This document shows, in pieces, positions 14,138 to 38,707 of a DNA stretch of 46,137 nt. Origin of the DNA: Prochloron sp. SulCav_FS08_3_32_3330 (GTDB lineage: Bacteria; Cyanobacteriota; Cyanobacteriia; Cyanobacteriales; DYNF01). The notes below the pieces were generated by a model. That model saw nothing but the letters and a program-made list of their open reading frames with translations, did not search any database and had not been told where the DNA came from. Position numbers and translations under genes: made by a program. The stretch lies in NCBI GenBank assembly GCA_020721205.1, contig DYNF01000020.1, forward strand, positions 8,521-54,657, given 5' to 3'. Within the stretch, counting starts at the first letter, position 1. Each line of letters opens with the position of its first letter.

Positions 14138-17100
14138 TTATTCTTTTGCTAATTCTTGATCAACTTTTTTTCTAATCTCTTGTTTAAATGGTTTATAAGT
14201 TTCCCCTTCTGCTAAAGGTGACATATCACCATCAGGCTTCCCAAAATCTAAAACATCTTTTTGATAATCATAAATTGCATTAATCCATTGTTTTTTTTGT
14301 TTATCATTTAAGGGTTGTTGATAATTTGTTAATGTTGGATCATTTAAAACATTTTTAATTTGTTCTTGAATTAATTGATTAAGTAAAGGTGTATATAACT
14401 CTTGATTATTATCATATTTTTGTTTAAGTAAAGGTGTTCTTTCCTTAATCATTTCCTGAGAAATTTCTCTTTCAATCTGCTTCAAAGAAACTAAGGTATT
14501 TTTGTCAAAATTTGGTAAAGCCTTTTGAATTGCTTCTTGCTTTTTAATTGTTTCTTGATCTGGAGTATTAGGTGTTATAGGTGTTATTATAGGTGTTGTA
14601 GGTGTTATTATAGGTGTTATTATAGGTGTTGGGTTAAGTCTAAATTGAAGATCTTTTTCTAATTGTGTTAAAGTTTCTGAATCAAGAATACCATATTCTA
14701 ATGTTAATTTTGAATCTTCCATTGTTAACCCTAATTGATAAGAATTAAGAGCTTCTAACCATTTTATTTGTTGTTGTTGTTTTAAAGTTTCCTCTTTAGT
14801 CCATTTCCCCTCTATTATTCCAGTATAATTTACACTACTATTAAGACTAAGCACTGCTTTTAAGTCCTGAATAACATCATTTCTTTCAGACGAGTTATCG
14901 CTTGTTTTTGTATTAATTAACTCTTGAATTTGTTGAGCAAAATTGTCAAATTTGTCTAAAGCATTTTTTTGTTCCTGCGGAAACATTTTAGGTTTAATAA
15001 CTTGTCTTAAATTGAATAAAGTATCTTTTTCTAATTGATCTTGACTATTTTCGCCCAGTATTCCATCACCTTTTAAATTTTGTACTACTTGATATTTATA
15101 AATTTGTTTCGCCCATATTTCTTTGTTAGGTTCTGTTATTTTAGTTAGAGTTTCAGCAGTTAAAAAGTTATCATTTAAACAACTAACTGTAGATTGAACT
15201 ACAGATTTATTTTTATTTTCATTGACAAATTGATGTCTATTTTCATCTACAGATTGATTTTTAGATTGATCTTCAGTTTCAGGTATATCTACACAAAGAG
15301 CCATAATTAATGCTTTATTAATATGTTGATCTTTAATCTGATTACTGACTTGACTTTCCCCAGTTAAATTAACTTCTTGTTTAATATTGTTCTTAATATC
15401 TGTTAAAGTTTCTCTTGTTTGTTTAATACTGTCAACTTTAGTCGCTTTTTCTAATAAATTTTCTGAAATAATAGGAGATTGTGGTGTTTTAAGACGTAGA
15501 AATAATAGAGTAAGAAAAAATACAATAATACTCATTATTAATCCCACTAAAAGCCCTTGCCAATTATTTTTCAGAAAATTGCCAACAGCTTTACTTCCTA
15601 TTTCAGTAGCAGGAATATCTCGTTTAATTATTATGCCAAGATAGGGTATTTCATTATTAAAACCAAAGGCATTTATAAAAGTTTCATTAGGGACTTTTCT
15701 TTGACTAACTTGATAAAAATAAGCTGATATTCTGTATTCATTTTGAGACTGAGCCAATTGAGCAAATAACTCACCAAAAGCTAAATAATCAGGAATAATT
15801 TTGCTTTGAGGATTGAGAAAAGTCAAAACTTTAATAATTGGTTTCCAAAGCTCAACATCACAGCAAAAATAATCAGATAGTGATTTTGGAGGTTGATTTT
15901 GTGAAGAATTATCTCTATATTGAGAATTATTAATTTTTGAAGTTTGGCTAGTGCTTATTAATTTTTGAAGTTCAAAACTTTTATTAGAAATAACTTGTAA
16001 ATCATCTTCAAAATTTTTCACCAAACTTTGTCGGCAATGTCTCCAAAAACTGTTGTTATTTTCTAATAAATCTTTAACGGTTTCTGTGGTTATAGTAGTA
16101 GTAGTTTTTTCTAATAATTTTGGTAATAATACCGCAATTCCTTGAGCTAATTTATCGTGTAAAATATTAATTTTATGAGGAGTAATATTTTTAAATACTG
16201 GATAAAATTCAGATTGAAAATCTAAAGAAGCCTGTTTAAAACCTTGATTAACTTCCATTTCTAACCACCGTAATAAATCAGGTAAAGTCTTAGGTAAAAT
16301 CATCGCTCTCAGAGTTAATAAACGTGCCATTAATTCACTAGAAATAGGCTGACTAATTGCTTTATTCGCTCCTTGTCCATCAAACCAATTTTCCCAATTT
16401 TTTGTCGTAATAGCGGTATTATCAATCACATCTGCTAAATCTTTAATAGCCTCATCTTTAATCCGAGACATTAAAGTTTTAATCGCTGATTTTATTTTTT
16501 GTTCATCAAAACCAACGGGAGTTAATCTTTGAACGGGGGTACTATATAATCGTCTTTTAACTCTTTCTAAACCTTCTTGATTCGCTGTATGAATAATTAT
16601 AAATCCCCAAGGATTTTCTACATTTTCGGCATTATAAATCCAAGCGACAGGTTGATTCATTAAATTCGCTTTATATAATGATCTAATGTGAATTGTGGGT
16701 AGATCAAATTGGGAATTGAGAATAGGTGTAGTTTGGGTTTCTAACCATTCTTGAATCGGTTGATTTAAACTATTTTGTCTTAAAATAGAATAAGCTGGAG
16801 ATTGATGTAATTTTCCCGTTTCTTGAGGCTTAAAAATTGGGTAAAAACCTTGATTTTTTTGTTTATAATCTTCAATAAAATCCACAATTTTAGTTAAATT
16901 AGCTTCACCCTCACAAAAGAAATAACGATAGACTGAAAGAGGTCTTCCCCCATCATCCCTTCCTAGACTGGCGATCGCTACCACAGACCAAGTTTTATCA
17001 TCAGAGGGTATAACCCTACCAATAATCGCAGGTTTATTGATATCTGATCCTTCCGTTGCTTCTAGTAATTGATTAGCGATCGCTCTTTCAATAGCGTAGG

Positions 17101-17236
17101 GAACACCCTCTGGATGAGTTAGATTCATATATCTGCCTGTGAATCCTCTGGAAACCCAACCACCCGGTGCCGAGGGATTAAGCTCAAAATTAATCCCCGT
17201 ACTAAATTCATAAATAAGAACAGACTGATTAACCAT
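14138..17236 (-). CDS. Large membrane protein of the GTPase cluster, GAP1-like N terminus
   Basis: A 1032-residue protein I cannot assign firmly. The N-terminal part (about 1-135), with 'FELNPSAPGGWVSRGFTGRYMNLTHPEG' and 'GRDDGGRPLSVYRYFFCEG', recalls the GTPase-associated protein 1 N-terminal domains known from predicted NTPase conflict systems; this is pattern memory, not a search. A helical region follows to about 540. One membrane segment is at about 559-582 ('WQGLLVGLIMSIIVFFLTLLFL'). Beyond it come three degenerate repeats of a 'W-x-x-x-I-x-x-YQ ... DG-x-L' type at about 703-745, 824-868 and 980-1028, like peptidoglycan-binding-1 domains, and a TPIITP-type linker at about 867-889. It is last in a four-gene run with three GTPase-like genes. 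Confidence 0.8.
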   Translation of the reverse strand: MVNQSVLIYEFSTGINFELNPSAPGGWVSRGFTGRYMNLTHPEGVPYAIERAIANQLLEATEGSDINKPAIIGRVIPSDDKTWSVVAIASLGRDDGGRPLSVYRYFFCEGEANLTKIVDFIEDYKQKNQGFYPIFKPQETGKLHQSPAYSILRQNSLNQPIQEWLETQTTPILNSQFDLPTIHIRSLYKANLMNQPVAWIYNAENVENPWGFIIIHTANQEGLERVKRRLYSTPVQRLTPVGFDEQKIKSAIKTLMSRIKDEAIKDLADVIDNTAITTKNWENWFDGQGANKAISQPISSELMARLLTLRAMILPKTLPDLLRWLEMEVNQGFKQASLDFQSEFYPVFKNITPHKINILHDKLAQGIAVLLPKLLEKTTTTITTETVKDLLENNNSFWRHCRQSLVKNFEDDLQVISNKSFELQKLISTSQTSKINNSQYRDNSSQNQPPKSLSDYFCCDVELWKPIIKVLTFLNPQSKIIPDYLAFGELFAQLAQSQNEYRISAYFYQVSQRKVPNETFINAFGFNNEIPYLGIIIKRDIPATEIGSKAVGNFLKNNWQGLLVGLIMSIIVFFLTLLFLRLKTPQSPIISENLLEKATKVDSIKQTRETLTDIKNNIKQEVNLTGESQVSNQIKDQHINKALIMALCVDIPETEDQSKNQSVDENRHQFVNENKNKSVVQSTVSCLNDNFLTAETLTKITEPNKEIWAKQIYKYQVVQNLKGDGILGENSQDQLEKDTLFNLRQVIKPKMFPQEQKNALDKFDNFAQQIQELINTKTSDNSSERNDVIQDLKAVLSLNSSVNYTGIIEGKWTKEETLKQQQQIKWLEALNSYQLGLTMEDSKLTLEYGILDSETLTQLEKDLQFRLNPTPIITPIITPTTPIITPITPNTPDQETIKKQEAIQKALPNFDKNTLVSLKQIEREISQEMIKERTPLLKQKYDNNQELYTPLLNQLIQEQIKNVLNDPTLTNYQQPLNDKQKKQWINAIYDYQKDVLDFGKPDGDMSPLAEGETYKPFKQEIRKKVDQELAKE

Positions 17237-17289
17237 AGTTTTAAATCCTAAAAAAAATTAATTAATTACAAAAAAAAAGAGGAGAATAA

Positions 17290-18198
17290 TTATTCTTGAT
17301 CTAATTGTTTATGTCTTTGACCCGTACATAACCAATAAATAGGAGCAACTAAACCAAAAGGCTTCCATTGTTTTGGTTTTTTAATCACAGACTCTTGAAG
17401 ACCGTCTCGATCTCGTCTGATTTTCGTCATATTAGGCTCAGGACGGGCATTACCTAACATTCCAAAAGCAGAAGTCATAAAACAATCCATATTGCCCGAA
17501 CCCATTTGCTCCCAAGCTTTTAACTTATTAATCATCTGAGGAAATCTTTGTTGTGCAGTAATTTGTGGTTGATCTAAATTAATCCATAACTCTGATTGCT
17601 CACATTTTGTCATCACAAAAGCAATGCGACGTTTAGTCGTGCCGATTTGTGAGCGATCCAATTGAGTTAAAAATTTATCTAAGCCCATGGCATAATTTTG
17701 ATCGTTAGTATAACTTAAACCATCCACTAACAAAAGTAAACCACTAGCTTGAAGACAATCCTCTAAATAATCCTCCAGAATTTGATCATTTTGTTTATAA
17801 ATTAGGTCTCCAAAAAACTCTCCTGCATAGTCTTTACAGTTAACATTAATGGTGACTAAAGAGGAATTATTCCGCCGATTAAACTGATTTTTGAGGACAA
17901 TACTTATACCATAATCCTTAATTTCCGTAACATTAGCATTAAGTTTAGTAGGTTGTAATTGTTCTCCTTGCTCTAAAACATTCTGAGCTTTTTCGATTAA
18001 TTGATCCCCATCTTCATTAATCGAAGTGACTTGTTGTACAGAACTAACGGAGGGATCCGCATTGGGCCACCGAGCTAAAGCCGCCATATAAGTAGTTTTT
18101 CCTGATTTGCGATCACCAAGGACCCGGATCGCCGCACTCAGTTGTTGAGGAGAACTAGCTTGTTTATTTTTGAAAATTTTATCAAATAAATTAGGCAT
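17290..18198 (-). CDS. P-loop GTPase-like protein A of the cluster
   Basis: A 302-residue GTPase-like protein. Walker A is GDRKSGKT at residues 28-35, the switch II/G3 equivalent is DYAGE at 123-127, and the G4 position reads TKCE at 197-200 instead of NKxD. The C terminus carries 'KPKQWKPFGLVAPIYWLCTG', almost the same as in protein B, so the two are paralogues. The open frame extends upstream to 18237, but that part lies inside a palindromic repeat, so I start at 18198 (MPNLFDKIF). It lies 53 bp upstream of the 1032-aa gene, which indicates co-transcription. Family candidates are the 'double-GTPase' groups linked to GAP1. Confidence 0.82.
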   Translation of the reverse strand: MPNLFDKIFKNKQASSPQQLSAAIRVLGDRKSGKTTYMAALARWPNADPSVSSVQQVTSINEDGDQLIEKAQNVLEQGEQLQPTKLNANVTEIKDYGISIVLKNQFNRRNNSSLVTINVNCKDYAGEFFGDLIYKQNDQILEDYLEDCLQASGLLLLVDGLSYTNDQNYAMGLDKFLTQLDRSQIGTTKRRIAFVMTKCEQSELWINLDQPQITAQQRFPQMINKLKAWEQMGSGNMDCFMTSAFGMLGNARPEPNMTKIRRDRDGLQESVIKKPKQWKPFGLVAPIYWLCTGQRHKQLDQE

Positions 18199-18220
18199 AA
18201 ATTTTAATTTGTTATTTGTA

Positions 18221-18374
18221 GAATGTAGGGTGGGCAATGCTCAGAATAACTTGATGGAAAGTCTTTTACGAATCTAAGCATTGCCCACCTTACGGTAGTA
18301 GAATGTAGGGTGGGCAATGCCCAGAATAACTTGATGGAAAGTCTTTTACGAATCTAAGCATTGCCCACCTTACG
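18221..18374. repeat. Two near-identical tandem palindromes, 80-bp period
   Basis: The copies start at 18221 and 18301 and differ by one base over 74 bp (CTCAGAAT against CCCAGAAT). Each has arms GTAGGGTGGGCAATGC and GCATTGCCCACCTTACG around a 30-nt loop. The repeat sits between GTPase genes A and B inside the putative operon. The same arm type occurs at 6983-7055. Confidence 0.85.
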
Positions 18375-18424
18375 TTTGATTTGTAGTTAATGTAATAGTT
18401 AATAAGAATAATTTAGCAAATAAA

Positions 18425-19255
18425 TTAAACATTTGCGCCTAATTTTTTCCCTGTACTGAGCCAATAAAGAGGAGCAATCAGATTATAAGGTTTCCATTTT
18501 TGAGGTTCTCTTAAAACAGACCATTTACCTTTTTTTCCGGGTTCATCTCTCCTGTTAGGACGGGGATCATTTCTTGCCAATACTCCAAAAGTAGAAATAG
18601 CAAAAAATTCTAAATTTTTTTGATTGAAATTAGATTTTTCTAAAACTAATCGAGTTTGACTTAAATGAGCACCAAAAATATCAAGATAAGGGTCAATTCT
18701 ACCTGTCCAAAGTTCTCCTCGTTCACATTTACTCATCGCTAAGGCAATTTTTAAATCATGATTGCGATCATATTGATCAAGAAAACTGAGAAAATTTTTA
18801 ATACTAGCACTATAATCTTCATCATCTTCTTTTTGCCAATCTCCTAATAAAATTAAACAGCCAACCACATCTTTTCTAAGAAAATCTTGATAGATTTCTT
18901 CATGATCTGGATTAATATTTCCTGAGGCTAAATTATCAAATAATTCCCCCGCCGAATCTCTCACAACTAAGTTAATAAGTTCTGTTTTATTACTAAACTT
19001 TTTCTTAACTTTAATTTGAAATTGATATTGAGCCATTTCACTAAAAGTTAAGACTTTTGTGCCTTGTAAAGACTCTTGAGGCATAATTACATTTTTTGCT
19101 TGTTTCTGTAAATTTTCTGAATCTTCCCCAATGGGATCCACATCAAAAATACTTTGATGATGAAGGGCGGCTTGACGTTGGGGCCAATAAGCTAAGGCAC
19201 ATAAATAAGTGGTTTTTCCTGAACTTCTCGGTCCAATAATCACAAGATTTCCCAT
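18425..19255 (-). CDS. P-loop GTPase-like protein B of the cluster
   Basis: A 276-residue paralogue of protein A. Walker A is GPRSSGKT at residues 8-15, G3 is DSAGE at 100-104 and the G4 position is SKCE at 175-178, again not NKxD. The shared C-terminal signature is 'PQKWKPYNLIAPLYWLSTG' (about 250-268). 'FAISTFGVL' near 225 matches 'FMTSAFGML' in A. It begins right at the P-loop, with no N-terminal extension. The gene lies 107 bp after GTPase C and 226 bp before A, with two palindromes in the second gap. Confidence 0.82.
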   Translation of the reverse strand: MGNLVIIGPRSSGKTTYLCALAYWPQRQAALHHQSIFDVDPIGEDSENLQKQAKNVIMPQESLQGTKVLTFSEMAQYQFQIKVKKKFSNKTELINLVVRDSAGELFDNLASGNINPDHEEIYQDFLRKDVVGCLILLGDWQKEDDEDYSASIKNFLSFLDQYDRNHDLKIALAMSKCERGELWTGRIDPYLDIFGAHLSQTRLVLEKSNFNQKNLEFFAISTFGVLARNDPRPNRRDEPGKKGKWSVLREPQKWKPYNLIAPLYWLSTGKKLGANV

Positions 19256-19362
19256 AATAATTATTCCTGATTAATAATTTTACTTAATATTACAATGATG
19301 AAAGAAAAAAAATTTTTTTAGTTTAATTTTAATAATTATTAATAATAATTATTAACTAATTA

Positions 19363-20106
19363 CTACAATTGACTAGCTAAATATAACCAAGGTAACTCTA
19401 ATAAAGAACGATTGTGAATAGTCGTAATAAAACAACGTACAGGCGCACCTTCTGTTGCACTACTAATTTGGTCTAATTGAGTTTGAACAACTTTAAAATA
19501 GCGTTGTTTAACGTAGGAATGACGCTCAAACCAACCTTTGCGATTATGTCTAGGATGATAACCTAATTCAGATTCTTCCTTTTCAATATTACAAAATAAA
19601 TCAGCTTTATTCAGACAAATAGTGATTTGTTGAGCTTTGGGACATTCAAATTGAAAGAAATTTACCCAACGCTGAAAACGCTGACACCACTGCTCTTTCG
19701 TCGGAAATAAACTACTATCTACTGAGGAGTTAAGACTAGGCATTTCTCTATAAGGGGGTAATACAAGAATAATACCCTCACTTTCTTGAATATTATTTAA
19801 TAATTTTTGCCAATTATCAGGATTATCTTTGCGCCAAGATTTGCGCCAAACTTCTCCGGGTGTATCTACCCAGTTAACCGATAAGTTTTTCGCTCCGGCG
19901 GGTAATTGGACCTCTACTTGTAAAGAATTTTCATACAGAGAATTTAATGCGGCTGTGGGCTGGATTTCCCCATCACGAAACAGTTTATCTTTTAAGTCTT
20001 GATATTGACAATTAGTAATCCGAACATAATTATACTTCGGATTGGTTAACTCAAGAGCTAATGAGGTTTTACCCGTAGCCCGATCGCCGATGTAAATTAT
20101 TCCCAA
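19363..20106 (-). CDS. P-loop GTPase-like protein C of the cluster (TTG start)
   Basis: A 247-residue protein with a more canonical GTPase set: GDRATGKTS at residues 7-15 (Walker A), DTPGE at 81-85 (G3) and NKAD at 166-169 (G4). The frame is open to an ATG at 20169, but an ideal AGGAGG ribosome site lies 8 nt before a TTG at 20106, and the product then opens at the P-loop as in protein B, so I chose the TTG. It ends in 'LPWLYLASQL', a shortened form of the APxYWL tail of A and B. It is the first gene of the leftward run and is divergent from the DUF697-type GTPase. Confidence 0.82.
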   Translation of the reverse strand: MGIIYIGDRATGKTSLALELTNPKYNYVRITNCQYQDLKDKLFRDGEIQPTAALNSLYENSLQVEVQLPAGAKNLSVNWVDTPGEVWRKSWRKDNPDNWQKLLNNIQESEGIILVLPPYREMPSLNSSVDSSLFPTKEQWCQRFQRWVNFFQFECPKAQQITICLNKADLFCNIEKEESELGYHPRHNRKGWFERHSYVKQRYFKVVQTQLDQISSATEGAPVRCFITTIHNRSLLELPWLYLASQL

Positions 20107-20163
20107 AGTAATTACCTCCTCACAATTTATTTTACTATAATAGTATAAAATATTTAACAATTC

Positions 20164-20197
20164 AATCATTAAGTTTTATTAATAAAACTTAATGATT
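20164..20197. promoter_or_regulatory. Perfect 34-bp palindrome between divergent GTPase genes
   Basis: AATCATTAAGTTTTATT (20164-20180) is followed without any loop by its exact reverse complement (20181-20197). It lies in the 208-bp gap between the leftward GTPase C gene and the rightward DUF697-type gene. It could be an operator shared by both promoters or a cruciform-forming site. Confidence 0.6.
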
Positions 20198-20314
20198 AGG
20201 GTTAAAATTTTTTGTAAAGGTATCTAAGAATTGATCAAAGAATGAACAGGTATTTTTTCCCCATTAATATTACAATAGAAAATATTGAGATTATTGCAAA
20301 AGGATGGGGAAATT

Positions 20315-21691
20315 ATGAAATCTTCAAAACCAATTTTAATCGGAGGAATTACTCTTTCTGTAGGGCTATGGGCGTTAAATAATTTACATCTTTCACCCTT
20401 CCCTCTCGAAGATTTAGGAGTTTTAAGTGCGATCGCCTTGGGTGGAGGTTTATGGTTACTTCAGAAAAGGGATAAAGTTACTCCGGTTTCTTCTATTCTA
20501 ACTTTTTTAACTCAAGAAGATGTAAATAAGGCTATTACATCAGCAGAAACGGCTTTTCAAATGTTAGAAAAAGAAGCAAAAAATTATGATCTGGCTAGTT
20601 TTAAATCAGAATTAAATCAGTTAGCAAAATTGACAGATCAAGAAAGTGTTAAAATTAATATTATTGGGGGTAAATATACAGGAAAAACCAGTTTAAGAGA
20701 ATTATTAAATCAAGAATTAAACCAAACTTTAATTATTAGTGAAAATTTAGATCAAGATTTAACTAAAATTGAAAATCAAGACAATTATGATCTGATTTTA
20801 TTCTTAATTAATGGAGATTTAACGGATAATCAATGGCAAAATCTTCAACAGTTAAAATCTTTAAATTATCGAGTTATTTTATTATTAAATAAACAGGATC
20901 GCTATTTACCTGAAGAAAAATTTTTAATCTTACAACAAATTAAAACAAGAGTTAATAAAATTATTCCAGAAAGTGATATTTTAGCGATCGCTACAAAACC
21001 AACAGATATTAAAGTGAGACAACATCAAAAAGATGGAACTATTAAGGAATATTTAGAGAAACAATTACCCCAATTTGATAATTTTGTTAAACATTTAACC
21101 CATATTTTAACAGTAGAAAAACCCCAATTAAACTTACAAAAAACTTGGCGAAATGCTTTTTTCTTTAAACAAAAAGTTAAAGCTAAATTAAATCAAATTA
21201 GAAAAGAAACCAGTTTACCTATTATTGAAAAATATCAATGGCTCTCAGCCGGAGCGATTTTTGCGAATCCAATTTCTAGTTTAGATTTATTAGCCACAGC
21301 CGCTATTAATGGACAATTATTAGTAGATTTAAGCGAAATTTATCAACAAAAATTTACTTTAGATCAAGCTCAAAATATTGCTAGTATAATGGGTAAATTA
21401 ATGGTACAATTAGGATTAGTTGAACTTTCTACCCAAACTATTAGCAGTTTATTAAAAAGTAACGCTTTTACTTATGTAGCAGGAGGCACAATTCAAGGTA
21501 TAAGTGCGGCTTATTTAACCAGAATTGCGGGGTTAAGTTTAATTGAATATTATCAAGATCAAGATATTACAAATAATCAAGAAAATTCTTTAAATTTAGA
21601 GAAATTAGGAGACAAAATTAAACAAATTTTCCAACAAAATCAACGTACAGATTTTTATCAAAATTTTGTGAAACAAGCTTTAAAAATTTAG
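20315..21691 (+). CDS. Membrane-associated GTPase with DUF697-like C terminus
   Basis: A 458-residue protein. Two hydrophobic segments occur near the N terminus (about 6-24 'ILIGGITLSVGLWALNNL' and 34-50 'LGVLSAIALGGGLWLL'). Walker A is GGKYTGKTS at about 118-126 and the G4 motif is NKQD at about 191. The C-terminal region (about 300-415: 'ANPISSLDLLATAAINGQLLVDLSEIYQQ', 'IQGISAAYLTRIAGLSLIEYY') is the helical DUF697/YcjF-like domain found in several cyanobacterial GTPases. I start at the ATG at 20315, 10 codons after an upstream TTG, because AAGGATGGGG precedes it. It is divergent from GTPases A-C and probably acts at a membrane with them; the link is inference from position. Confidence 0.85.
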   Translation: MKSSKPILIGGITLSVGLWALNNLHLSPFPLEDLGVLSAIALGGGLWLLQKRDKVTPVSSILTFLTQEDVNKAITSAETAFQMLEKEAKNYDLASFKSELNQLAKLTDQESVKINIIGGKYTGKTSLRELLNQELNQTLIISENLDQDLTKIENQDNYDLILFLINGDLTDNQWQNLQQLKSLNYRVILLLNKQDRYLPEEKFLILQQIKTRVNKIIPESDILAIATKPTDIKVRQHQKDGTIKEYLEKQLPQFDNFVKHLTHILTVEKPQLNLQKTWRNAFFFKQKVKAKLNQIRKETSLPIIEKYQWLSAGAIFANPISSLDLLATAAINGQLLVDLSEIYQQKFTLDQAQNIASIMGKLMVQLGLVELSTQTISSLLKSNAFTYVAGGTIQGISAAYLTRIAGLSLIEYYQDQDITNNQENSLNLEKLGDKIKQIFQQNQRTDFYQNFVKQALKI

Positions 21692-21801: not shown

Positions 21802-22068
21802 ATGATTCAACAAATTCAAGTTAAAATTGACATTTTCAAAGAAGAAAATTTATTTGTTGCTTTATGTCCAGAATTAGATGTTTCTAGTTTTGGTGAAACA
21901 ATAGAAGAAGCAAAACAATCTATTAAAGAGGCTTTAATGGCTTTTTTAGAAGAATGTGAAGCCATGAATACCCTAGAAATTGTTTTAGAAGAAGCTGGTT
22001 TTATTCAACAAAATAATAGTTGGCAACCTCGTCAACCCGTTATATCTGAATTAGTTGCAATTAGTTAA
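21802..22068 (+). CDS. hicB: HicB family antitoxin
   Basis: An 88-residue protein with the partial RNase-H-like HicB fold: 'IDIFKEENLFVALCPELDVSSFGETIEEAKQSIKEALMAFLEEC'. The pattern of a beta strand, then 'V(A)xCPELD-x-x-(S)xGxTxEEA', is diagnostic of the family. HicB neutralises the mRNA interferase HicA. The gene appears whole, but the partner directly downstream (22077-22244) is truncated, so the antitoxin may be a relic or may serve in trans. Confidence 0.82.
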   Translation: MIQQIQVKIDIFKEENLFVALCPELDVSSFGETIEEAKQSIKEALMAFLEECEAMNTLEIVLEEAGFIQQNNSWQPRQPVISELVAIS

Positions 22069-22076
22069 TTATCAAA

Positions 22077-22244
22077 ATGGGAAAACCACAAAAAATAATT
22101 CCTATTCATTACCAAAAATTAGTTAAAATTTTTGAGTTAGAATGCTTTATTGTCAAAAGACAAAAAAGTGATCATTTAATCATGACAAAAACTTTACTTA
22201 AATCTAAAATTAATTCAGGAAATTTAGGTAAAGAAATAGTTTGA
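22077..22244 (+). pseudogene. hicA: Truncated hicA toxin remnant
   Basis: The frame starts 8 bp after hicB and gives 55 residues. Residues about 10-37 ('IHYQKLVKIFELECFIVKRQ' then KSDHLIMTK) follow the HicA plan: N-terminal helix, then 'F-x-V-x-RQKGSH'. The catalytic histidine position is kept (DH in place of SH). After about residue 38 the frame runs into the tail of the antisense Uma2 gene, and the usual second strand and helix of HicA are lost. Family members are normally 60-80 residues, so it is probably inactive. Confidence 0.6.
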
Positions 22245-22753
22245 TGAGGTAAATAAATTTGTTGTTGACTATAGGCAAATTTGCCGTTATGTTTTTGATA
22301 AGGATTACTATAAGATTCTAATTGAAAATCTAATAAATTAAAAATCCAATAATAATTAAGATTAGCTTCGGCGTAAAGTTCTAATTTTACTTTTTGATCA
22401 TATTCTATAGAAGAATCAGCAATTTCTATCACTAAAATTATATCTTCTACGGTAGGATGATGAGATAAATAATCATCATCTTTAAAATTAACAATAGCAA
22501 AATCTGGTTCAGGTTCGCTACCCGATGGTAGTAAAATTGGATCTTGACAACGTACAATTGCCACATTTTCTAATAATAGACTAAGATTTTTATTGAGTCT
22601 ACTACAACAAACCGTATGAAATGTACCTTTAGCCGCCATATAGTTAATTTTTCCTTTGATTAATTCAATATGATCATCTTCAGAGAAAAAACCTATTTCT
22701 GTTAAATGATGGTATTCTGCTGAAGAAAATCTTTTTTCTATTGCTACAGTCAT
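22172..22753 (-). CDS. Uma2 family endonuclease (DUF820)
   Basis: A 193-residue PD-(D/E)XK-fold protein of the family expanded in cyanobacteria. The core is visible: 'RFSSAEYHHLTEIGFFSEDDHIELIKGKI' (about 8-36), 'SGSEPEPDFAIV' (about 78-88), 'ILVIEIADSSIEYDQKVKLELYAEANLNYYWI' (about 105-137). The E and the E-x-K-type positions for metal binding look intact. Biological role unknown; often mobile or near mobile DNA. Its 3' end overlaps the hicA remnant on the other strand, suggesting its arrival or a deletion trimmed hicA. Confidence 0.88.
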   Translation of the reverse strand: MTVAIEKRFSSAEYHHLTEIGFFSEDDHIELIKGKINYMAAKGTFHTVCCSRLNKNLSLLLENVAIVRCQDPILLPSGSEPEPDFAIVNFKDDDYLSHHPTVEDIILVIEIADSSIEYDQKVKLELYAEANLNYYWIFNLLDFQLESYSNPYQKHNGKFAYSQQQIYLPHQTISLPKFPELILDLSKVFVMIK

Positions 22754-23019: not shown

Positions 23020-23928
23020 TTGAAAAAAGCAACATTACATCAATTAAAAGTATTTGAAGTATGTGCTAGACAGGGCAGTTTTACGAGGGCGGCAGAGGAA
23101 TTAATGATTACTCAGCCCACCGTTTCAACTCAGATCAAACAGTTAACAAATGGGATCGGTTTACCTTTATTTGAACAGATTGGCAAACGTCTTTATTTAA
23201 CCGATGGTGGGAAGGCTTTATTAGAAACTTGTCAAGAAATATTTACCAGTCTTGATAATTTTGATATGCAAGTTGCCGCCCTTCAAGGAATGCAAACAGG
23301 AAGACTACGTTTAAGCGTTATTACTACTGCTAAATATTTTATTCCTCGATTATTAGGTTTGTTTTGTCAAAAATATCCAGATATTGATATTTCTTTGCAA
23401 TTTCTTAACCATGAAAATTTACAAAAAAGGATGTTAAAAAATAAAGATGATCTTTATATTTTAAGTAATATTCCTCAAGATATTGATCTTTGTAGTGAGG
23501 CTTTTTTAGATAATCCTTTAGTGGTAGTTACGAGAAAAGATCATCCTTTAGTTAATCAAAAAAATATACCTATTACTACTCTTAATAATGAGTCTTTTAT
23601 TATGCGGGAAGCGGGTTCTGGTACAAAAAAAGCAATTCAAAATTTATTTAATAAACATAATATTAATGTTAAAGTTAGATTAGAATTAGGTAGTAATGAA
23701 GCAATTAAACAAGCGATCGCTGGTGGTTTAGGAATTTCTGTTTTATCTCGTCATACTTTAATTGGGGAAGGAAATGGAGAATTAAAAATTATTGATGTGC
23801 AGAATTTTCCCATTAATAAACATTGGTATGTAACTTATTTAACGGGTAAACAATTATCTATTGTCGCTCAAACTTTTTTAGATTTTTTGTTACTTGAAAG
23901 TAAAAATATTCCTCTTTATGAATCATAA
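23020..23928 (+). CDS. ndhR: LysR-type regulator, NdhR/CcmR-like
   Basis: A 302-residue LysR regulator. The N-terminal winged helix 'LHQLKVFEVCARQGSFTRAAEELMITQPTVSTQIKQLTNGIGLPLFEQ' (about 5-53) is complete, followed by the effector-binding domain. Translation starts at TTG, with AAGGAGG 8 nt upstream. In cyanobacteria NdhR/CcmR represses the inducible CO2-uptake operon in response to carbon metabolites; here it sits directly upstream of, and in line with, ndhF3-ndhD3-cupA-cupS, as in Synechococcus PCC 7002. CmpR or RbcR are alternatives by sequence alone, but the context favours NdhR. Confidence 0.85.
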   Translation: MKKATLHQLKVFEVCARQGSFTRAAEELMITQPTVSTQIKQLTNGIGLPLFEQIGKRLYLTDGGKALLETCQEIFTSLDNFDMQVAALQGMQTGRLRLSVITTAKYFIPRLLGLFCQKYPDIDISLQFLNHENLQKRMLKNKDDLYILSNIPQDIDLCSEAFLDNPLVVVTRKDHPLVNQKNIPITTLNNESFIMREAGSGTKKAIQNLFNKHNINVKVRLELGSNEAIKQAIAGGLGISVLSRHTLIGEGNGELKIIDVQNFPINKHWYVTYLTGKQLSIVAQTFLDFLLLESKNIPLYES

Positions 23929-24288: not shown

Positions 24289-26136
24289 ATGAATCATCTT
24301 TTTAGTAACAATATTTGGTTAATTCCGATCTATACCTTAAGTGGAATTTTACTTTCTATTTTATGGTTTCCCGGAATTATCAAAAAAACCGGACCTCGTC
24401 CTTCGGGATATCTCAATATTTTATTTACCGTTATAGCATGGGTTCATAGTTTATTAGCATTAAAAGAAATTTGGAATCAACCTCCTGAATTTCTGTCTTT
24501 TAGTTGGTTAAAACTTAATACTTTATCCCTCAGTTTTGATATAGAAATATCAACTTTAACTGTCGGGGCTTTAGTATTAATTACAACCTTAAATTTAGCA
24601 TCACAAATTTATGCGATCGGTTACTTAGAAATGGATTGGGGCTGGGCGAGATTTTTCGCTTTAATGGGTTTATTTGAAGCAGGAATGTGTAGCTTAGTCT
24701 TATGTGATAACCTCTTTTTTAGCTATGTTATCTTAGAAATTTTAACACTAGGAACTTATCTTTTAATTGGTTATTGGTTTAATCAATCCCTTGTAGTAAC
24801 GGGAGCGAGGGACGCATTTCTAACAAAAAGGGTAGGGGATTTATTCTTATTAATGGGGGTAGTTGCACTATTACCATTAACAGGAACTTGGAATTTTCAC
24901 GAGTTAGAAATTTGGACAAAAACTGCGGAAATTTCTCCTACTGTTGCCAATTTATTATGTTTAACTTTAATGGCTGGACCTTTAGGAAAATGTGCGCAAT
25001 TTCCTCTGCATCTTTGGCTAGATGAAGCGATGGAAAGTCCCGTTCCCGCTACCATTTTAAGAAATAGTTTAGTTGTGGCGGCGGGGGGCTGGGTTTTAAT
25101 AAAATTACAGCCAATATTTGCTCTTTCTTCGCTAATTTCTACAGCGATTATTACCGTTGGAGCTATCACTGCGGTGGGGGCTTCTTTAATTGCGATCGCA
25201 CAAATTGATATAAAAAGATCCCTCTCTTATACAGTTAGTGCTTACATGGGTTTATTATTTATCGCTGTAGGAACACAACAGACTCAAACTATTCTTTTCG
25301 TATTACTAACTTATGCCATCTCAATGGCACTTTTAGTAATGAGTATTGGCTCAGTTGTCCTAACAAATATTACCCAAGATTTAACTCAATACGGAGGCTT
25401 ATTTTCTCGTAGACCGATAACAGCAATCTGTTATTTAATCGGGGCGGCTTCCTTAGTAGCATTTCCTCCTTTAGGTGGTTTTTGGTCTTTATCACAAATT
25501 AACAGTAATTTATGGGAAAATTACCCCTTTTTAGTAATAATAATTACCCTTGTTAATGGCTTAACAACTTTCAGTGTAATAAGGGAATTTTGCTTAATTT
25601 TTGGTGGTAAACCTAAAGAAATGACCGTGCGATCGCCTGAAGGTTTATGGGCTTTAATTTTACCAATGACTATTATTATGGGTTTAGCAATTCATACACC
25701 TATTATCTTAGCTAAATTACATCTTTTACCAAGTTTAAATGAATTAAATATTGGGGTAGTAATAGCTTTAATTACTTCCACATTTGTAGGAGGTGGAATT
25801 AGTGCTTATCTCTACTTAAATGATAAAATTAGTAAACCTATACAACTTAAGCCAAAAGCATTACAAGACTTTTTTGCTTATGATATGTACACCCCTGAAT
25901 TATATCGTATAACTATCATTTCATTAGTTGCTTTCATCTCTAAAATAATTGATTGGTTTGACCGATATTTTGTAGATGGATTCGTTAATTTAGTGGGTTT
26001 TGCTACAATTTTTAGTGGAGAAAGTTTGAAGTATAATACCACAGGAAAAGCTCAATTTTATGCTCTTTCAATTATACTTGGACTTGCTTTATTTATTCTT
26101 TTAATTTGCTTTCCCATTTTACCTAATTTACTTTGA
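24289..26136 (+). CDS. ndhF3: NDH-1 subunit F3 (inducible CO2-uptake complex NDH-1MS)
   Basis: A 615-residue antiporter-like membrane subunit with many hydrophobic helices. 'LCDNLFFSYVILEILTLGTYLLIGYWFN', 'GDLFLLMGVVALL', 'FPLHLWLDEAMESPVPATILRNS' and 'AIAQIDIKRSLSYTVSAYMG' (about 300-320) match NdhF/NuoL. The protein lacks the long tail of respiratory NdhF1, and the next genes are ndhD3 and cupA, so it belongs to the CO2-hydrating NDH-1MS complex on thylakoids, not to the respiratory complex. NdhF4 is excluded by the presence of CupS and order. It has a long leader (about 165 nt from the candidate promoter) with a 24-codon small ORF at 24148-24222. Confidence 0.93.
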   Translation: MNHLFSNNIWLIPIYTLSGILLSILWFPGIIKKTGPRPSGYLNILFTVIAWVHSLLALKEIWNQPPEFLSFSWLKLNTLSLSFDIEISTLTVGALVLITTLNLASQIYAIGYLEMDWGWARFFALMGLFEAGMCSLVLCDNLFFSYVILEILTLGTYLLIGYWFNQSLVVTGARDAFLTKRVGDLFLLMGVVALLPLTGTWNFHELEIWTKTAEISPTVANLLCLTLMAGPLGKCAQFPLHLWLDEAMESPVPATILRNSLVVAAGGWVLIKLQPIFALSSLISTAIITVGAITAVGASLIAIAQIDIKRSLSYTVSAYMGLLFIAVGTQQTQTILFVLLTYAISMALLVMSIGSVVLTNITQDLTQYGGLFSRRPITAICYLIGAASLVAFPPLGGFWSLSQINSNLWENYPFLVIIITLVNGLTTFSVIREFCLIFGGKPKEMTVRSPEGLWALILPMTIIMGLAIHTPIILAKLHLLPSLNELNIGVVIALITSTFVGGGISAYLYLNDKISKPIQLKPKALQDFFAYDMYTPELYRITIISLVAFISKIIDWFDRYFVDGFVNLVGFATIFSGESLKYNTTGKAQFYALSIILGLALFILLICFPILPNLL

Positions 26137-26141
26137 AAAAA

Positions 26142-26337
26142 GGTTCGTTGTGGTGCATTTAGCACCACTTAACTGACAAAAAAAAGGTTCGTTGTTGTGC
26201 ATTTAGCACCACTTAACTGACAAAAAAAAGGTTCGTTGTTGTGCATTTAGCACCACTTAAAAAATAATTAATAATTATTTTAAAATAATATCTATTTACA
26301 TCACAAGTTTAAAGCGCTGAAGCGCAACAACAAACCT
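26142..26337. repeat. Three 44-bp hairpin repeats plus a related arm, ndhF3-ndhD3 gap
   Basis: Copies start at 26142, 26186 and 26230: GGTTCGTTGTTGTGCATTTA then GCACCACTTAACTGAC and an A run. Each forms a GTGGTGC/GCACCAC hairpin. A related arm (AGCGCTGAAGCGCAACAACA) ends the gap at about 26312-26337. The tract lies inside the ndhF3 operon and could affect mRNA stability between the two genes. Confidence 0.85.
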
Positions 26338-26371
26338 TTTTGATTTATTCATTATTTATTAAGAGAAAAAA

Positions 26372-27862
26372 ATGACATTAAGTTTAATTCTTTGGCTACC
26401 TTTAATTGGTGTTTTAATAATTGGTTTTTTCCCCAATCCCGTTAAAACTAATACCTTAAGAAATATCACCACTTTATTTATTTTTATTACCCTTTGTTTA
26501 AGCATTTATTTATTAACTCAATTTAATTTGGGTATATCTAAAATACAATTTACCGAATATTTGACTTGGATACCTCAAATCGGATTAAACTATAGTTTAG
26601 GAGTTGATGGTTTATCCTTACCTTTGATTTTTCTCAATGGATTATTAACCTTAATTGCTATCTATAGCATTGGCGAAAAAGTAGAACGTCCTCGCCTTTA
26701 TTATGCCCTAATGTTATTAATAAATTCGGGAATTTCAGGAGCATTAATGGCAGATAATTTATTGTTTTTCTTGATTTTTTATGAATTAGAATTAATCCCC
26801 TTTTATCTAATGATTGCGATCTGGGGAGGAGAGAAAAAAGGTTATGCTTCCATAAAATTTTTACTCTATACTGCCGTTTCTGGATTATTAGTATTAGCCG
26901 CATTTTTAGGCATAACTTGGTTTAGTGGATCAGCCAGTTTTGATTATGCAGATATTAACACAATGGCTTTATCTGCTAATACAAAATTTATTCTTTTAAC
27001 CCTATTATTAATCGGATTTGGGATTAAAATTCCCCTTGTACCTTTACATACTTGGCTACCAGATTCTTATGTTGAAGCATCACCAGCAACCACAATTTTA
27101 TTAGGAGGAATTTTAGCAAAATTAGGCACTTATGGCTTAATTAGATTTGGTTTACAATTATTTCCTGATACTTGGAAATTAGTCGCTCCGGGACTTGCTT
27201 TAATTGGCACAATAACCGTTTTATATGGAGCTTTAGTCGCTATTGCCCAAAGAGATATTAAGCGAATGATAGCCTATAGTTCTATCGGTCACATGGGCTA
27301 TATTTTAGTAGCTTGTGCGGCGGCTACAGAATTAAGTTTATTAGGTGCAGTCGCACAAATGGTAAGTCATGGATTAATCTTAGCCTTACTATTTCATCTA
27401 GTAGGAATTATCGAAAGAAAAACAGGGACAAGAGATTTAGATCAACTCAATGGTTTAATGAATCCCATTAGAGGATTACCATTAACAAGTGCTTTATTAA
27501 TTGGGGCAGGAATGGCAAGTGCAGGTATTCCCGGATTAGTGGGTTTTATCTCAGAATTTATCATTTTTCAAGGTAGTTTTATAATCTTTCCCATAGCAAC
27601 ATTAATATGTATTATTGCTTCGGGTTTAACTGCGGTTTATTTCGTCATTCTTTTAAACCGTACCTGTTTCGGAAAACTTAATAATAAACTTGCTTATTAT
27701 CCTCAAGTTTTATTATTAGAAAAAATCCCCGCTTTTGTTCTAGCCACCCTAATTTTATTTTTAGGGATTCAACCCCAATATTTAACTCGTTGGATCGAAC
27801 CCACAACGGATCATTTAATTGCAACTTTAACACCAATTAATGTGGAAATTGCCCAAAAATAG
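26372..27862 (+). CDS. ndhD3: NDH-1 subunit D3 (inducible CO2-uptake complex)
   Basis: A 496-residue antiporter-like NuoM/NdhD subunit. Motifs: 'GLNYSLGVDGLSLPLIFLNGLLT' (about 73-95), 'LLFFLIFYELELIPFYLMIAIWGG' with the membrane glutamate (about 131-152), 'KIPLVPLHTWLPDSYVEASPATTILL' (about 217-242) and 'AIAQRDIKRMIAYSSIGHMGYI' (about 290-311). Placement between ndhF3 and cupA assigns it to the D3 form, which pumps or channels protons coupled to CO2 hydration. It has at least 12 hydrophobic segments. Confidence 0.93.
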   Translation: MTLSLILWLPLIGVLIIGFFPNPVKTNTLRNITTLFIFITLCLSIYLLTQFNLGISKIQFTEYLTWIPQIGLNYSLGVDGLSLPLIFLNGLLTLIAIYSIGEKVERPRLYYALMLLINSGISGALMADNLLFFLIFYELELIPFYLMIAIWGGEKKGYASIKFLLYTAVSGLLVLAAFLGITWFSGSASFDYADINTMALSANTKFILLTLLLIGFGIKIPLVPLHTWLPDSYVEASPATTILLGGILAKLGTYGLIRFGLQLFPDTWKLVAPGLALIGTITVLYGALVAIAQRDIKRMIAYSSIGHMGYILVACAAATELSLLGAVAQMVSHGLILALLFHLVGIIERKTGTRDLDQLNGLMNPIRGLPLTSALLIGAGMASAGIPGLVGFISEFIIFQGSFIIFPIATLICIIASGLTAVYFVILLNRTCFGKLNNKLAYYPQVLLLEKIPAFVLATLILFLGIQPQYLTRWIEPTTDHLIATLTPINVEIAQK

Positions 27863-27983
27863 GTTCGTAGTTGGGCTTCAGCCCGACATAGGGCTAAAGC
27901 CCTACTAAAAACAACTTATAACAAAAATAGGTTCGTAGTTGGGCTTCAGCCCGACATAGGGCTAAAGCCCAACTACGAACAAA
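27861..27983. repeat. Two 68-bp hairpin repeats, ndhD3-cupA gap
   Basis: Copies begin at 27861 and 27929: AGGTTCGTAGTTGGGCTTCA then GCCCGACATAGGGCTAAAGCCC. The arms GTTCGTAGTTGGGCTT and AAGCCCAACTACGAAC pair in the second copy. The sequence is a variant of the palindrome at 32957-33013. Confidence 0.85.
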
Positions 27984-28014
27984 ACTAACATTTATATTAA
28001 CAGGAGAACTAAAA

Positions 28015-29304
28015 ATGACCCAAACTTTAACCAAAATTTCCCCATCAAATCACGAATTTGCTGATATTATTCATCGTTTAGAAGCAGGGGGATCAATGTT
28101 ACCAGATACCCCAGAAAATCTAATGCAAATTATCGGCATTTATAAAGCTTATGCTGTTCCAATGGACTTCTATTGGCGGGATTTATTATATATAGCTGAA
28201 AAAGTATTTTTAAACCCTTTACCATTTTTTAAATATTTCCTACCTCAAGAATATTTAGACTTAAAAAATCACTATGCTGGAGATACAGCAGATCTACGAG
28301 TTTGGCGAGGTTGTGCTGAAGCTCATCCCGAATTAATTAACTTTATTGAAAAAGGCGAAACTATCAAAGGATCAAAACTTTTTCATCATCTCTGGCATGA
28401 CCGAATTAATATGGAATTTGCTGAAGCTTGTATGAGGGCAATGTATTGGCATGGTCGTGATATGGGCATGGGTAAATTTGATTCTTACTTAGACAGCGAC
28501 GAATATAAACATAACGCAGATGTAGCAATAAAGGCATATTTTAAAGGAAATCCTGCAATGTTAGGGTTATATAAATTATTTCCTGAAATGTTCTTAGAAC
28601 AAGTAAGACAACTTTCTTATTATTCTAACTTAGGTTTATTTTGGGAAGTAATGTGTCCTGTGTTTTACGAAATGTCAGATATTTATGATGAAGGTGGTTT
28701 TAAAGACGTTTCAGATGCTATGAATTTCTTAGTTAATGGTATTTTTGCCATCGCAGGAAGACCTATTTATCATCATGTTTATATTGATGGTAAATGTTAT
28801 GAAATTATCTCAAAATCTAAAGGTTTTACATGGTTATATGAGGCGGCTTTACCTTATGTAGAAGCGGTATTTTATCGCACTTCTCCCTTCCGAGGAACTA
28901 AGTCTTATAATGCCCAAGCAAAACAAGTTCCAGAGCATCAAAAAGACTTTCATTATGGTATTTTATATGCTGATGTTTTCCCCGTTGGATCGGCAGGAAT
29001 ACCCCCAACTTTATTAATGGATGATATGCTTCATTTTTTACCTGATTATTTAAAGGAATATTACCAGAAAAATTGTCGAGGAGAAGATGATCAATTAATT
29101 CAATTAGGGATTACTTTTCAGCGTTCAATGTATAATGTAACTTCCGCAGTTATTCAAGCTTTACGCACCGCTTTATTATATCCTTTAGATGATGAAAACC
29201 CAAAACATTTAATGAAAAATCGTCAATTTTTTGAGGCTCAAATGGATAGATTTAAACGCCCAGAAGCTCGTTTAAAAGATATTCAAAATCCAGATTATCG
29301 GTAA
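28015..29304 (+). CDS. cupA: CO2 hydration protein CupA (ChpY)
   Basis: A 429-residue peripheral subunit unique to the CO2-uptake forms of NDH-1, thought to act as a vectorial carbonic anhydrase converting CO2 to bicarbonate on the thylakoid surface. The sequence fits the ChpX/ChpY family ('MDFYWRDLLYIAEKVFLNPLPFFKYFLP', 'LWHDRINMEFAEACMRAMYWHGRDMGMGKFDSYLD'). Context (ndhF3-ndhD3 upstream, cupS downstream) favours the inducible CupA over constitutive CupB. An AGGAGAACTAAAA ribosome site precedes the ATG. Confidence 0.93.
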   Translation: MTQTLTKISPSNHEFADIIHRLEAGGSMLPDTPENLMQIIGIYKAYAVPMDFYWRDLLYIAEKVFLNPLPFFKYFLPQEYLDLKNHYAGDTADLRVWRGCAEAHPELINFIEKGETIKGSKLFHHLWHDRINMEFAEACMRAMYWHGRDMGMGKFDSYLDSDEYKHNADVAIKAYFKGNPAMLGLYKLFPEMFLEQVRQLSYYSNLGLFWEVMCPVFYEMSDIYDEGGFKDVSDAMNFLVNGIFAIAGRPIYHHVYIDGKCYEIISKSKGFTWLYEAALPYVEAVFYRTSPFRGTKSYNAQAKQVPEHQKDFHYGILYADVFPVGSAGIPPTLLMDDMLHFLPDYLKEYYQKNCRGEDDQLIQLGITFQRSMYNVTSAVIQALRTALLYPLDDENPKHLMKNRQFFEAQMDRFKRPEARLKDIQNPDYR

Positions 29305-37522: not shown

Positions 37523-38626
37523 TTACTTCGCCAAAGGTAACTTAATAATAATCGTTGTAATCTCATTCGGAATACTTTTAATTTGTAAATTTCCTTGATA
37601 AATTTCGATAATCTTTTTGGCGATCGCTAAACCCAAACCTGATCCCTGTTGTTCATATTTTTGACGTTCAAACTGAATATAAGCGCCAATATTTTTTAAC
37701 TGATCAGGCAAAAAACCCCTTCCTTTATTCGTAATATTTAATTCATAATAATTATCTTGATTAAACCCCTTAATAATTATGGGAGTTTCCAAAGAAGAAA
37801 ATTTTAAACTATTATCAATTATTTCCATTAATAAAGAAACGAAAAAATCTTCTTGAATAGCAAGAGTACCTTCTTCTATCTCAAATTGTAAATCCTCAAT
37901 TCTTTGATAATTTTGAGCTTGTTTTTTTGCTACAGATTTAATAATATTAACAACAGAATTTAATTTTGAACTAACAATTAAATCCTGATTATTTTTCTGT
38001 TCTAAAATTTTTGATTCTAAACTAGAATAAAATAAAAATTTTTGGCTTAAAGTCAATAATCTTTGAGAAGATTCCCTAAAAATTTCAACAATTTCCTTAA
38101 TATCAAGAGGATCAATCGGTTGAGAATTAGCAACTATTTCTAAATAATCCGTTGCTAAAACAATATTTTGTAAAGGAGTACGAAACTCGTGGGGAAATGC
38201 GGTAGTTAAATTATGACGCAGAATATTTAAAGGCACTTGAGAATGACTTTCTACTACCTTTTTTTTCTCTAAACGGATATTAATTGCATTAAATAAATCA
38301 TCCTTACTAAAAGGTTTTGTTAAATAATCATCCGCCCCTAAATTCATCCCTTGTCTTAAATTTTGAAGGGAATTTATTCCCGTTAAAAAAATAAAGGGAA
38401 TCGCTTCTGTTACGGGATTTTTCCTGATTTCTTTAATTACTTCATAACCATTTATATCAGGCATCAAAATATCACAAAGAATTAAATCAGGTAGATACTT
38501 ACTTGCTAATTCTAAACCGATTTTACCCTGATCTGCTGTTAAAACTTTAAACCCTTGAATTGTTAAAAATTTATCTATAAACAGTAAAAGTGATTCATCA
38601 TCTTCAATAATTAAAATTGTACACAT
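37523..38626 (-). CDS. Hybrid response regulator/histidine kinase
   Basis: A 367-residue protein with a receiver domain (residues 1-120, phosphoacceptor D52 in 'LPDLILCDILMPDINGYE', K104 in 'LTKPF'), a DHp domain with H146 in 'PHEFRTPLQN', and a HATPase domain ('NSLKFS' near 274, 'GSGLGLAIAKKIIEIYQG' near 335-352). A receiver at the N terminus followed by a kinase is typical of cyanobacterial response-regulator kinases. The ATG at 38632 is an alternative start two codons upstream. It is third in a signalling run; no DNA-binding output. Confidence 0.88.
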   Translation of the reverse strand: MCTILIIEDDESLLLFIDKFLTIQGFKVLTADQGKIGLELASKYLPDLILCDILMPDINGYEVIKEIRKNPVTEAIPFIFLTGINSLQNLRQGMNLGADDYLTKPFSKDDLFNAINIRLEKKKVVESHSQVPLNILRHNLTTAFPHEFRTPLQNIVLATDYLEIVANSQPIDPLDIKEIVEIFRESSQRLLTLSQKFLFYSSLESKILEQKNNQDLIVSSKLNSVVNIIKSVAKKQAQNYQRIEDLQFEIEEGTLAIQEDFFVSLLMEIIDNSLKFSSLETPIIIKGFNQDNYYELNITNKGRGFLPDQLKNIGAYIQFERQKYEQQGSGLGLAIAKKIIEIYQGNLQIKSIPNEITTIIIKLPLAK

Positions 38627-38707
38627 AATCATTCAATTTAAAATTCAAAAATAAGAAGGTGGTAGGAAGGGTTAGATTGTTAAAATCTAATCGCTAATCA
38701 TTTTTAT

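What the first reader, a model, noticed from the sequence alone, without database searches (positions are those of the whole stretch)
14138..21691. Five-gene multi-GTPase cluster with a giant membrane protein: candidate undescribed system
Three small P-loop GTPase-like genes (A, B, C) run leftward with a 1032-aa one-pass membrane protein, and a DUF697-type membrane GTPase runs rightward from the same 208-bp gap. The large protein's N terminus recalls GAP1-type domains that accompany paired GTPases in computationally predicted NTPase conflict systems. Here, however, it is joined to a membrane segment and three peptidoglycan-binding-like repeats, a layout I do not know as described. Seen: P-loops, strand order, membrane segments. 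Known: GAP1/double-GTPase families exist. Inferred: one functional system, possibly sensing or acting at the envelope.
Basis: partly seen in the sequence, partly recalled or inferred. Interest (0 to 1): 0.85.

Follow-up and report, generated by a model that had tools for sequence, protein, structure and literature searches.

The report
Cyanobacterial envelope GTPase signalling system core
Three small GTPase genes and a wall-anchored membrane protein form the conserved core of a larger, apparently undescribed cyanobacterial signalling system that probably links the state of the cell envelope to phosphorylation switches inside the cell; the fifth gene of the proposed cluster is an unrelated neighbour.

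Summary
A, B, C (P-loop GTPases with DxxGE Walker B) and the 1032-aa protein L (one membrane segment, three C-terminal repeats) are real, and A-B-C-L is a strongly conserved operon in more than 60 cyanobacterial loci. The rightward DUF697 gene (slr1306 family) occurs in 149/149 genomes of the order and in no other L locus: a bystander. In relatives the operon continues with a 4-TM protein with an FHA-like tail, an exported vWA protein, lipoproteins, a cytoplasmic vWA protein, a zinc-ribbon FHA protein and a pseudokinase-PP2C protein; in this genome those lie on two other contigs. C passes Pfam DO-GTPase cut-offs. L shows no GAP1 match by sequence, but its confident AlphaFold model resembles TagF, the type VI secretion regulator, and longin/DENN-type GTPase regulators; its repeat corresponds to a peptidoglycan-binding domain in relatives. 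Best reading: an envelope-spanning GTPase/phospho-signalling system, a cyanobacterial variant of the predicted DO-GTPase-GAP1 systems. The kinase/PP2C/vWA theme and TM-fused GAP1 are already described (eLife 2020, other phyla). The TagF/longin/DENN link, wall-binding tail and full operon appear new. Trigger and output are unknown.

The parts
14138..17236 (-). L, 1032 aa: N-terminal TagF/longin/DENN-like domain, alpha-solenoid, one TM, three wall-binding-like repeats
16529..17236 (-). L residues 1-236, TagF/longin/DENN-like domain (AlphaFold2 pLDDT 92.7)
   Evidence: TagF 9t0n E 5.7e-4, Z 6.8, 184 aligned; then longin/DENN GTPase regulators at Z 4-5
16943..16957 (-). DxxGR motif, L residues 94-98 (DDGGR); D in 60/62, R in 61/62 relatives; the same motif is in TagF and in a GAP1-N2 protein
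15557..16528 (-). L residues 237-560, alpha-solenoid (HEAT/importin-like matches, Z 4-5)
15497..15553 (-). L transmembrane segment, about residues 562-580
15008..15487 (-). L C-terminal repeat 1 (residues 584-743, 21 bits)
14627..14989 (-). L C-terminal repeat 2 (residues 750-870, 44 bits)
14150..14581 (-). L C-terminal repeat 3 (residues 886-1029, 60 bits)
   Evidence: corresponds to PG_binding_1 (PF01471) in relatives
17290..18237 (-). GTPase C, 315 aa, GDRKSGKT / DYAGE / TKCE; DO-GTPase2 and DO-GTPase1 over Pfam cut-off
18425..19255 (-). GTPase B, 276 aa, GPRSSGKT / DSAGE / SKCE; paralogue of C (35% identity); DO-GTPase1/2 just under cut-off
19363..20169 (-). GTPase A, 268 aa (likely TTG start at 20106), GDRATGKT / DTPGE / NKAD; distinct first GTPase of the operon
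20285..21691 (+). D, slr1306 family (NF049994, DUF697): NOT part of the system

Best explanation
A-B-C-L is the GTPase/regulator core of an envelope-spanning signalling system found in cyanobacteria. L sits in the inner membrane. Its periplasmic tail binds or reads peptidoglycan (inferred from PG_binding_1 matches), and its cytoplasmic face is a TagF/longin/DENN-like domain followed by an alpha-solenoid. That domain binds the co-encoded DO-GTPases A, B and C, as longin/DENN modules do with eukaryotic small GTPases, and sets or reads their nucleotide state (inferred). Exported partners (PPC-like lipoproteins with variable C-terminal domains, an exported vWA protein) gather envelope signals. Cytoplasmic FHA, vWA and pseudokinase-PP2C proteins couple the GTPase switch to Ser/Thr phosphorylation, in the manner of the threonine-phosphorylation pathway that controls type VI secretion. 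In this genome the parts lie on three contigs: the window, C181 and C101. Shown: gene content, order, co-occurrence, motifs, membrane segment, repeats, predicted fold. Inferred: GTPase binding by L, wall sensing, phospho-coupling. Unknown: trigger and output.
For: Operon A-B-C-L-M1-M2-LP(n)-vWAm-X130-VWA-FHA-KP across 93 loci, median gaps 2-41 bp in the first part and M1-M2 overlapping. L in 24 and M1 in 23 of 149 genomes with 19 shared, hypergeometric p = 7e-16. The missing parts exist in the own genome: C181:11116-25663 (M1, M2, lipoproteins, vWAm) and C101:16584-20891 (VWA, FHA, PP2C). DO-GTPase Pfam matches and DxxGE. L 1-236 model resembles TagF, then GATOR1, DENND1A/B-Rab35, Lst4, Roadblock-Longin and SEDL. 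PG_binding_1 in relatives' tails. Domain identities of the partners.
Against: The TagF match (Z 6.8-7.3) is below the level at which a common arrangement can be excluded, and sequence profiles do not support it. The window's own repeats do not reach the Pfam PG_binding_1 threshold. GTPase-L contact was not modelled. Some genomes have L without M1 or M1 without L (5 and 4 of 149; several of these are fragmentary matches, incomplete genomes or a divergent subtype). No effector was recognised.
Confidence: 0.62

Rival explanations
1. It is a bona fide DO-GTPase-GAP1-N2 conflict (immunity) system: L is a highly diverged GAP1, the variable lipoproteins detect invaders, and an effector kills or arrests the cell.
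For: DO-GTPases in paralogous copies upstream of L, C-terminal TM, kinase/PP2C/vWA partners as in the third GAP1-N2 theme (PMC7159879); patchy distribution (24/149); a DxxGR hairpin motif shared by L and a Rhodococcus GAP1-N2 protein.
Against: No GAP1-N2/M Pfam match in any L; 0/386 cyanobacterial genomes over the GAP1-N2 cut-off; no FNIII or recognised effector domain in the loci scanned; no PADLOC match beyond E 0.004.
Confidence: 0.22
2. It is a regulatory module for a secretion or contractile injection machine, like TagF/PppA/Fha in type VI secretion.
For: TagF-like fold, PP2C and FHA partners; TagF genes lie next to PP2C genes in T6SS clusters; TagF acts through Fha (PMC5995506).
Against: The T6SS sheath family VipB occurs in 0/149 genomes of the order; TagF systems have no co-encoded small GTPases in the clusters seen here.
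Confidence: 0.08
3. The first reader's five-gene cluster with the DUF697 GTPase D as a divergently transcribed member.
For: Shared 208-bp intergenic gap.
Against: D is ubiquitous (149/149) and absent from every other L locus.
Confidence: 0.03
4. A housekeeping envelope-biogenesis complex (wall synthesis or division) rather than a sensor.
For: Wall-binding-like repeats, lipoproteins with an ARC6-like IMS domain (27/56) and beta-lactamase-type domains (8/56).
Against: Patchy distribution (24/149); variable lipoprotein numbers and tandem L paralogues.
Confidence: 0.05

Closest known systems
DO-GTPase-GAP1-N2 systems (Kaur et al. 2020, eLife, PMC7159879), kinase/PP2C/vWA theme
   Same: DO-GTPase family genes in paralogous copies with the Walker B glutamate; a downstream multi-domain partner with a C-terminal membrane segment; kinase, PP2C and vWA genes; extracellular domains.
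   Different: Three GTPases without fused zinc ribbons; no detectable GAP1-N2/M domain; no FNIII protein seen; FHA and lipoprotein partners; found in cyanobacteria, while the paper calls the kinase theme restricted to actinobacteria.
TagF (ImpM) and the threonine-phosphorylation pathway of type VI secretion
   Same: Closest solved fold to L 1-231; DxxGR motif (TagF S79-D81-R85 is needed for Fha binding, PMC5995506); PP2C and FHA partners.
   Different: No T6SS sheath in the order; L is membrane-anchored with a wall-binding tail; three co-encoded GTPases; no sequence-level match.
Eukaryotic/archaeal longin, roadblock-longin and DENN GTPase regulators (GATOR1, FLCN-FNIP, DENND1, SEDL)
   Same: Fold-level matches to L 1-236, and encoded beside small GTPases.
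   Different: Z only 3-5; no sequence similarity; GEF/GAP activity untested.
slr1306 family (NF049994, DUF697)
   Same: Gene D is a clear member (575.7 bits, cut-off 490).
   Different: Not part of the system.

Membership tests
DO-GTPase (PF19975/PF19993) | Match over curated cut-off | tested here: met
   C 32.9 and 32.4 bits against 27; B 24.2 and A 17.3 fall below; a B/C paralogue in L168 scores 31.1/30.8
DO-GTPase (PF19975/PF19993) | P-loop plus conserved Glu in the Walker B motif (DxxGE) | tested here: met
   A DTPGE, B DSAGE, C DYAGE; conserved across 73 A and 158 B/C proteins
DO-GTPase (PF19975/PF19993) | Paralogous copies in one operon | tested here: met
   A, B, C in most loci
DO-GTPase-GAP1-N2 system | GAP1-N2 domain (PF20013) | tested here: not met
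   No match in window L, 19 relatives or divergent L'; 0/386 cyanobacterial genomes over cut-off, control rings
DO-GTPase-GAP1-N2 system | GAP1-M domain (PF20014) | tested here: not met
   No match; the positive control L156 scores 35.4 bits
DO-GTPase-GAP1-N2 system | FNIII-repeat partner | tested here: not met
   None among the partners scanned in L038/L040 and the own genome; not every locus was scanned
DO-GTPase-GAP1-N2 system | Fold of GAP1-N/M shared with L | not testable with these tools
   No solved GAP1 structure found by sequence; non-locus proteins may not be folded here
TagF | Fold | tested here: inconclusive
   Best match: Foldseek E 5.7e-4, prob 0.94; VIA Z 6.8-7.3 over 182-184 residues
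TagF | Sequence profile | tested here: not met
   hhalign probability 0.2%, though the best local alignment falls on the DxxGR hairpin
TagF | Type VI secretion context | tested here: not met
   VipB 0/149 genomes
Peptidoglycan-binding domain PF01471 | Match over cut-off in the L tail | tested here: inconclusive
   Not in window L itself; 6 of 19 L relatives match (best E 2.4e-5); L' 55.3 and 41.9 bits against 23; window repeats match the relatives' tail profile
slr1306 family NF049994 | Match over cut-off (gene D) | tested here: met
   575.7 bits against 490

The most novel reading that the evidence does not exclude
L's N-terminal domain, TagF and the GAP1-N2/M pair are one bacterial family of longin/DENN-like GTPase regulators marked by a DxxGR hairpin, and this cyanobacterial system uses it to couple cell-wall state to a three-GTPase switch and a kinase/phosphatase/FHA relay: a bacterial counterpart of the eukaryotic longin/DENN control of Rab and Rag GTPases.
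Probability: 0.35. Interest if true: 0.85.

Novelty: new variant of a known kind. Interest (0 to 1): 0.6.

Why it matters
It gives a testable role to a recurrent cyanobacterial operon whose large protein has no Pfam or NCBIfam match in its cytoplasmic half. If the longin/DENN/TagF reading is right, it explains how DO-GTPases are controlled, suggests how TagF (a T6SS repressor of unknown ancestry) arose, and places longin/DENN-type GTPase regulation in bacterial envelope signalling. It also widens the DO-GTPase systems to cyanobacteria.

Tried and rejected
GAP1-N2 by Pfam, by HMM with background and by hhalign (single sequence and profile): no significant match. GAP1 sequences were obtained only from two near-identical Rhodococcus plasmid records, reached with a probe sequence that I wrote from memory and then verified by Pfam, so no GAP1 profile could be built. 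Two other actinobacterial plasmids had none. PADLOC gave only a weak mad8 match to B, E 0.004. Viral collections gave no relatives of L or GAP1 and no fold match. PDB sequence searches gave nothing for L or C. Gene D as a member was rejected. Literature searches found no paper on this operon, in an open-access library only.

Full report
Observation. The five ORFs exist as described. Reading A from TTG 20106 and D from ATG 20315 gives the stated 208-bp gap. A, B and C carry GxxxxGKT P-loops and DxxGE Walker B motifs. L has one membrane segment near residue 562. A profile of relatives' tails finds three copies in the window protein, while most relatives have one.

What belongs and what does not. 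L-family proteins were found in 24 of 149 genomes of the order and at 72 loci in a wider scan, all cyanobacterial as far as can be told. Gene calling and profile searches over 93 loci show a constant order A-B-C-L, then M1 (4 TM plus an FHA-like tail), M2 (signal peptide, vWA, C-terminal TM), lipoproteins, a membrane vWA protein, a ~130-aa protein, a cytoplasmic vWA protein, a zinc-ribbon FHA protein and a PP2C protein with a kinase-like N-terminal region. None of the 24 KP proteins has an HRD-K kinase motif, so that region is probably a pseudokinase; 20 of 24 keep the PP2C DGMGG motif. D is in every genome tested (149/149) and in no other L locus, so it is a bystander.

The rest of the system in this genome. 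M1, M2, lipoproteins and vWAm lie at C181:11116-25663; VWA, FHA and PP2C lie at C101:16584-20891, followed by a two-kinase TPR protein. L and M1 occur in the same genomes far beyond chance (19 shared of 24 and 23; p = 7e-16), and pairwise distances of L, A, M1, M2 and VWA correlate (Spearman 0.59-0.75; this partly reflects species relatedness). A divergent subtype (L165-L168) has the same A-B-B'-L'-M1'-M2'-X130' order, with an AAA+ gene after it.

Identity of the GTPases. C is over the Pfam cut-offs for both DO-GTPase models and B just below. All have the Walker B glutamate that PMC7159879 names as a hallmark. B and C have a SKCE/TKCE G4 motif, A a canonical NKAD.

Identity of L. No Pfam or NCBIfam model matches the cytoplasmic half. 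AlphaFold2 with 58-59 sequences gives confident models (L 1-560 pLDDT 90.6; L 1-236 pLDDT 92.7). The nearest solved structures of L 1-236 are TagF (9t0n, E 5.7e-4, prob 0.94, Z 6.8 over 184 residues; 6iz8 and 2qnu also listed), then GATOR1, DENND1A/B with Rab35, Lst4 longin, Roadblock-Longin, SEDL and FLCN-FNIP at Z 3-5. The tool warns that Z below 8 can be a common arrangement, so this is a lead with moderate support. Residues 237-560 resemble alpha-solenoids. L has a nearly invariant D94xxGR98 on the hairpin between the last two strands (D 60/62, R 61/62). TagF has SxDxxGR at a similar place, where S79/D81/R85 are required to bind Fha (PMC5995506), and the Rhodococcus GAP1-N2 protein has DGSGR. 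Profile comparisons are not significant, although the best local L-TagF alignment and the L-GAP1 alignments fall on this hairpin.

The envelope side. PG_binding_1 matches the tail in 6 of 19 L proteins and reaches 55 and 42 bits in L' proteins. The lipoproteins share an N-terminal domain (which I read as PPC-like, by eye) and vary C-terminally: ARC6-like IMS in 27 of 56, beta-lactamase type in 8 of 56.

Mechanism. I favour an envelope-sensing complex in which L links wall state to the GTPases through its longin/DENN-like domain, coupled to FHA/PP2C/vWA phospho-signalling. The anatomy is shown; the contacts, direction of signalling, trigger and output are inferred or unknown.

Comparison. The kinase/PP2C/vWA theme and TM-fused GAP1 are described for DO-GTPase-GAP1-N2 systems, the former as restricted to actinobacteria. 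Membership is not claimed because GAP1-N2 and GAP1-M were tested and not met. T6SS regulation is unlikely because VipB is absent from 149 genomes. I found no paper describing this operon, within an open-access library.

Noticed in passing
G000 contig C181:11116-25663 (L162/L163) and C101:16584-20891 (L164): The remaining parts of the system lie unlinked from the window in this genome, on two other contigs.
   Followed up: yes
L162:17685-18848: A lipoprotein-like beta-lactamase-type protein (PF13354) with intact STVK and SDN motifs lies inside the lipoprotein array; similar proteins are in 8 of 56 lipoproteins of other loci. Possibly a muropeptide or beta-lactam sensor.
   Followed up: partly
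L162:9662-11044: A lipoprotein of the same family is fused to WD40 repeats and faces away from M1.
   Followed up: no
L163:5689-8697: An Eco57I-type restriction-modification methylase gene directly follows the membrane vWA gene.
   Followed up: no
L165, L166, L167, L168: A second, divergent subtype of the system has an AAA+ gene at its end; in L167 and L168 a radical-SAM activase-like gene (by eye) lies directly upstream of A.
   Followed up: partly
L039, L047, L061, L071, L110: Tandem L paralogues (2-5 L-family ORFs in a row, some short or without the N-terminal domain) suggest local amplification.
   Followed up: no
L171, L172, L175, L177, L178: In type VI secretion clusters tagF is followed by a PP2C gene, echoing the PP2C partner of L.
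   Followed up: no
window 21802-22753: A lone HicB-like 88-aa ORF and a Uma2-family gene follow D.
   Followed up: no
window 24289-29304: Two long multi-TM proteins (probably NdhF/NdhD type, by eye) and a ChpXY CO2-hydration protein (PF10216) form an apparent CO2-uptake cluster, preceded by a LysR-like regulator at 23020-23928.
   Followed up: no
window 39897-44351: A 1484-aa multi-PAS/GAF histidine kinase, with a response regulator/histidine kinase protein at 37523-38632.
   Followed up: no
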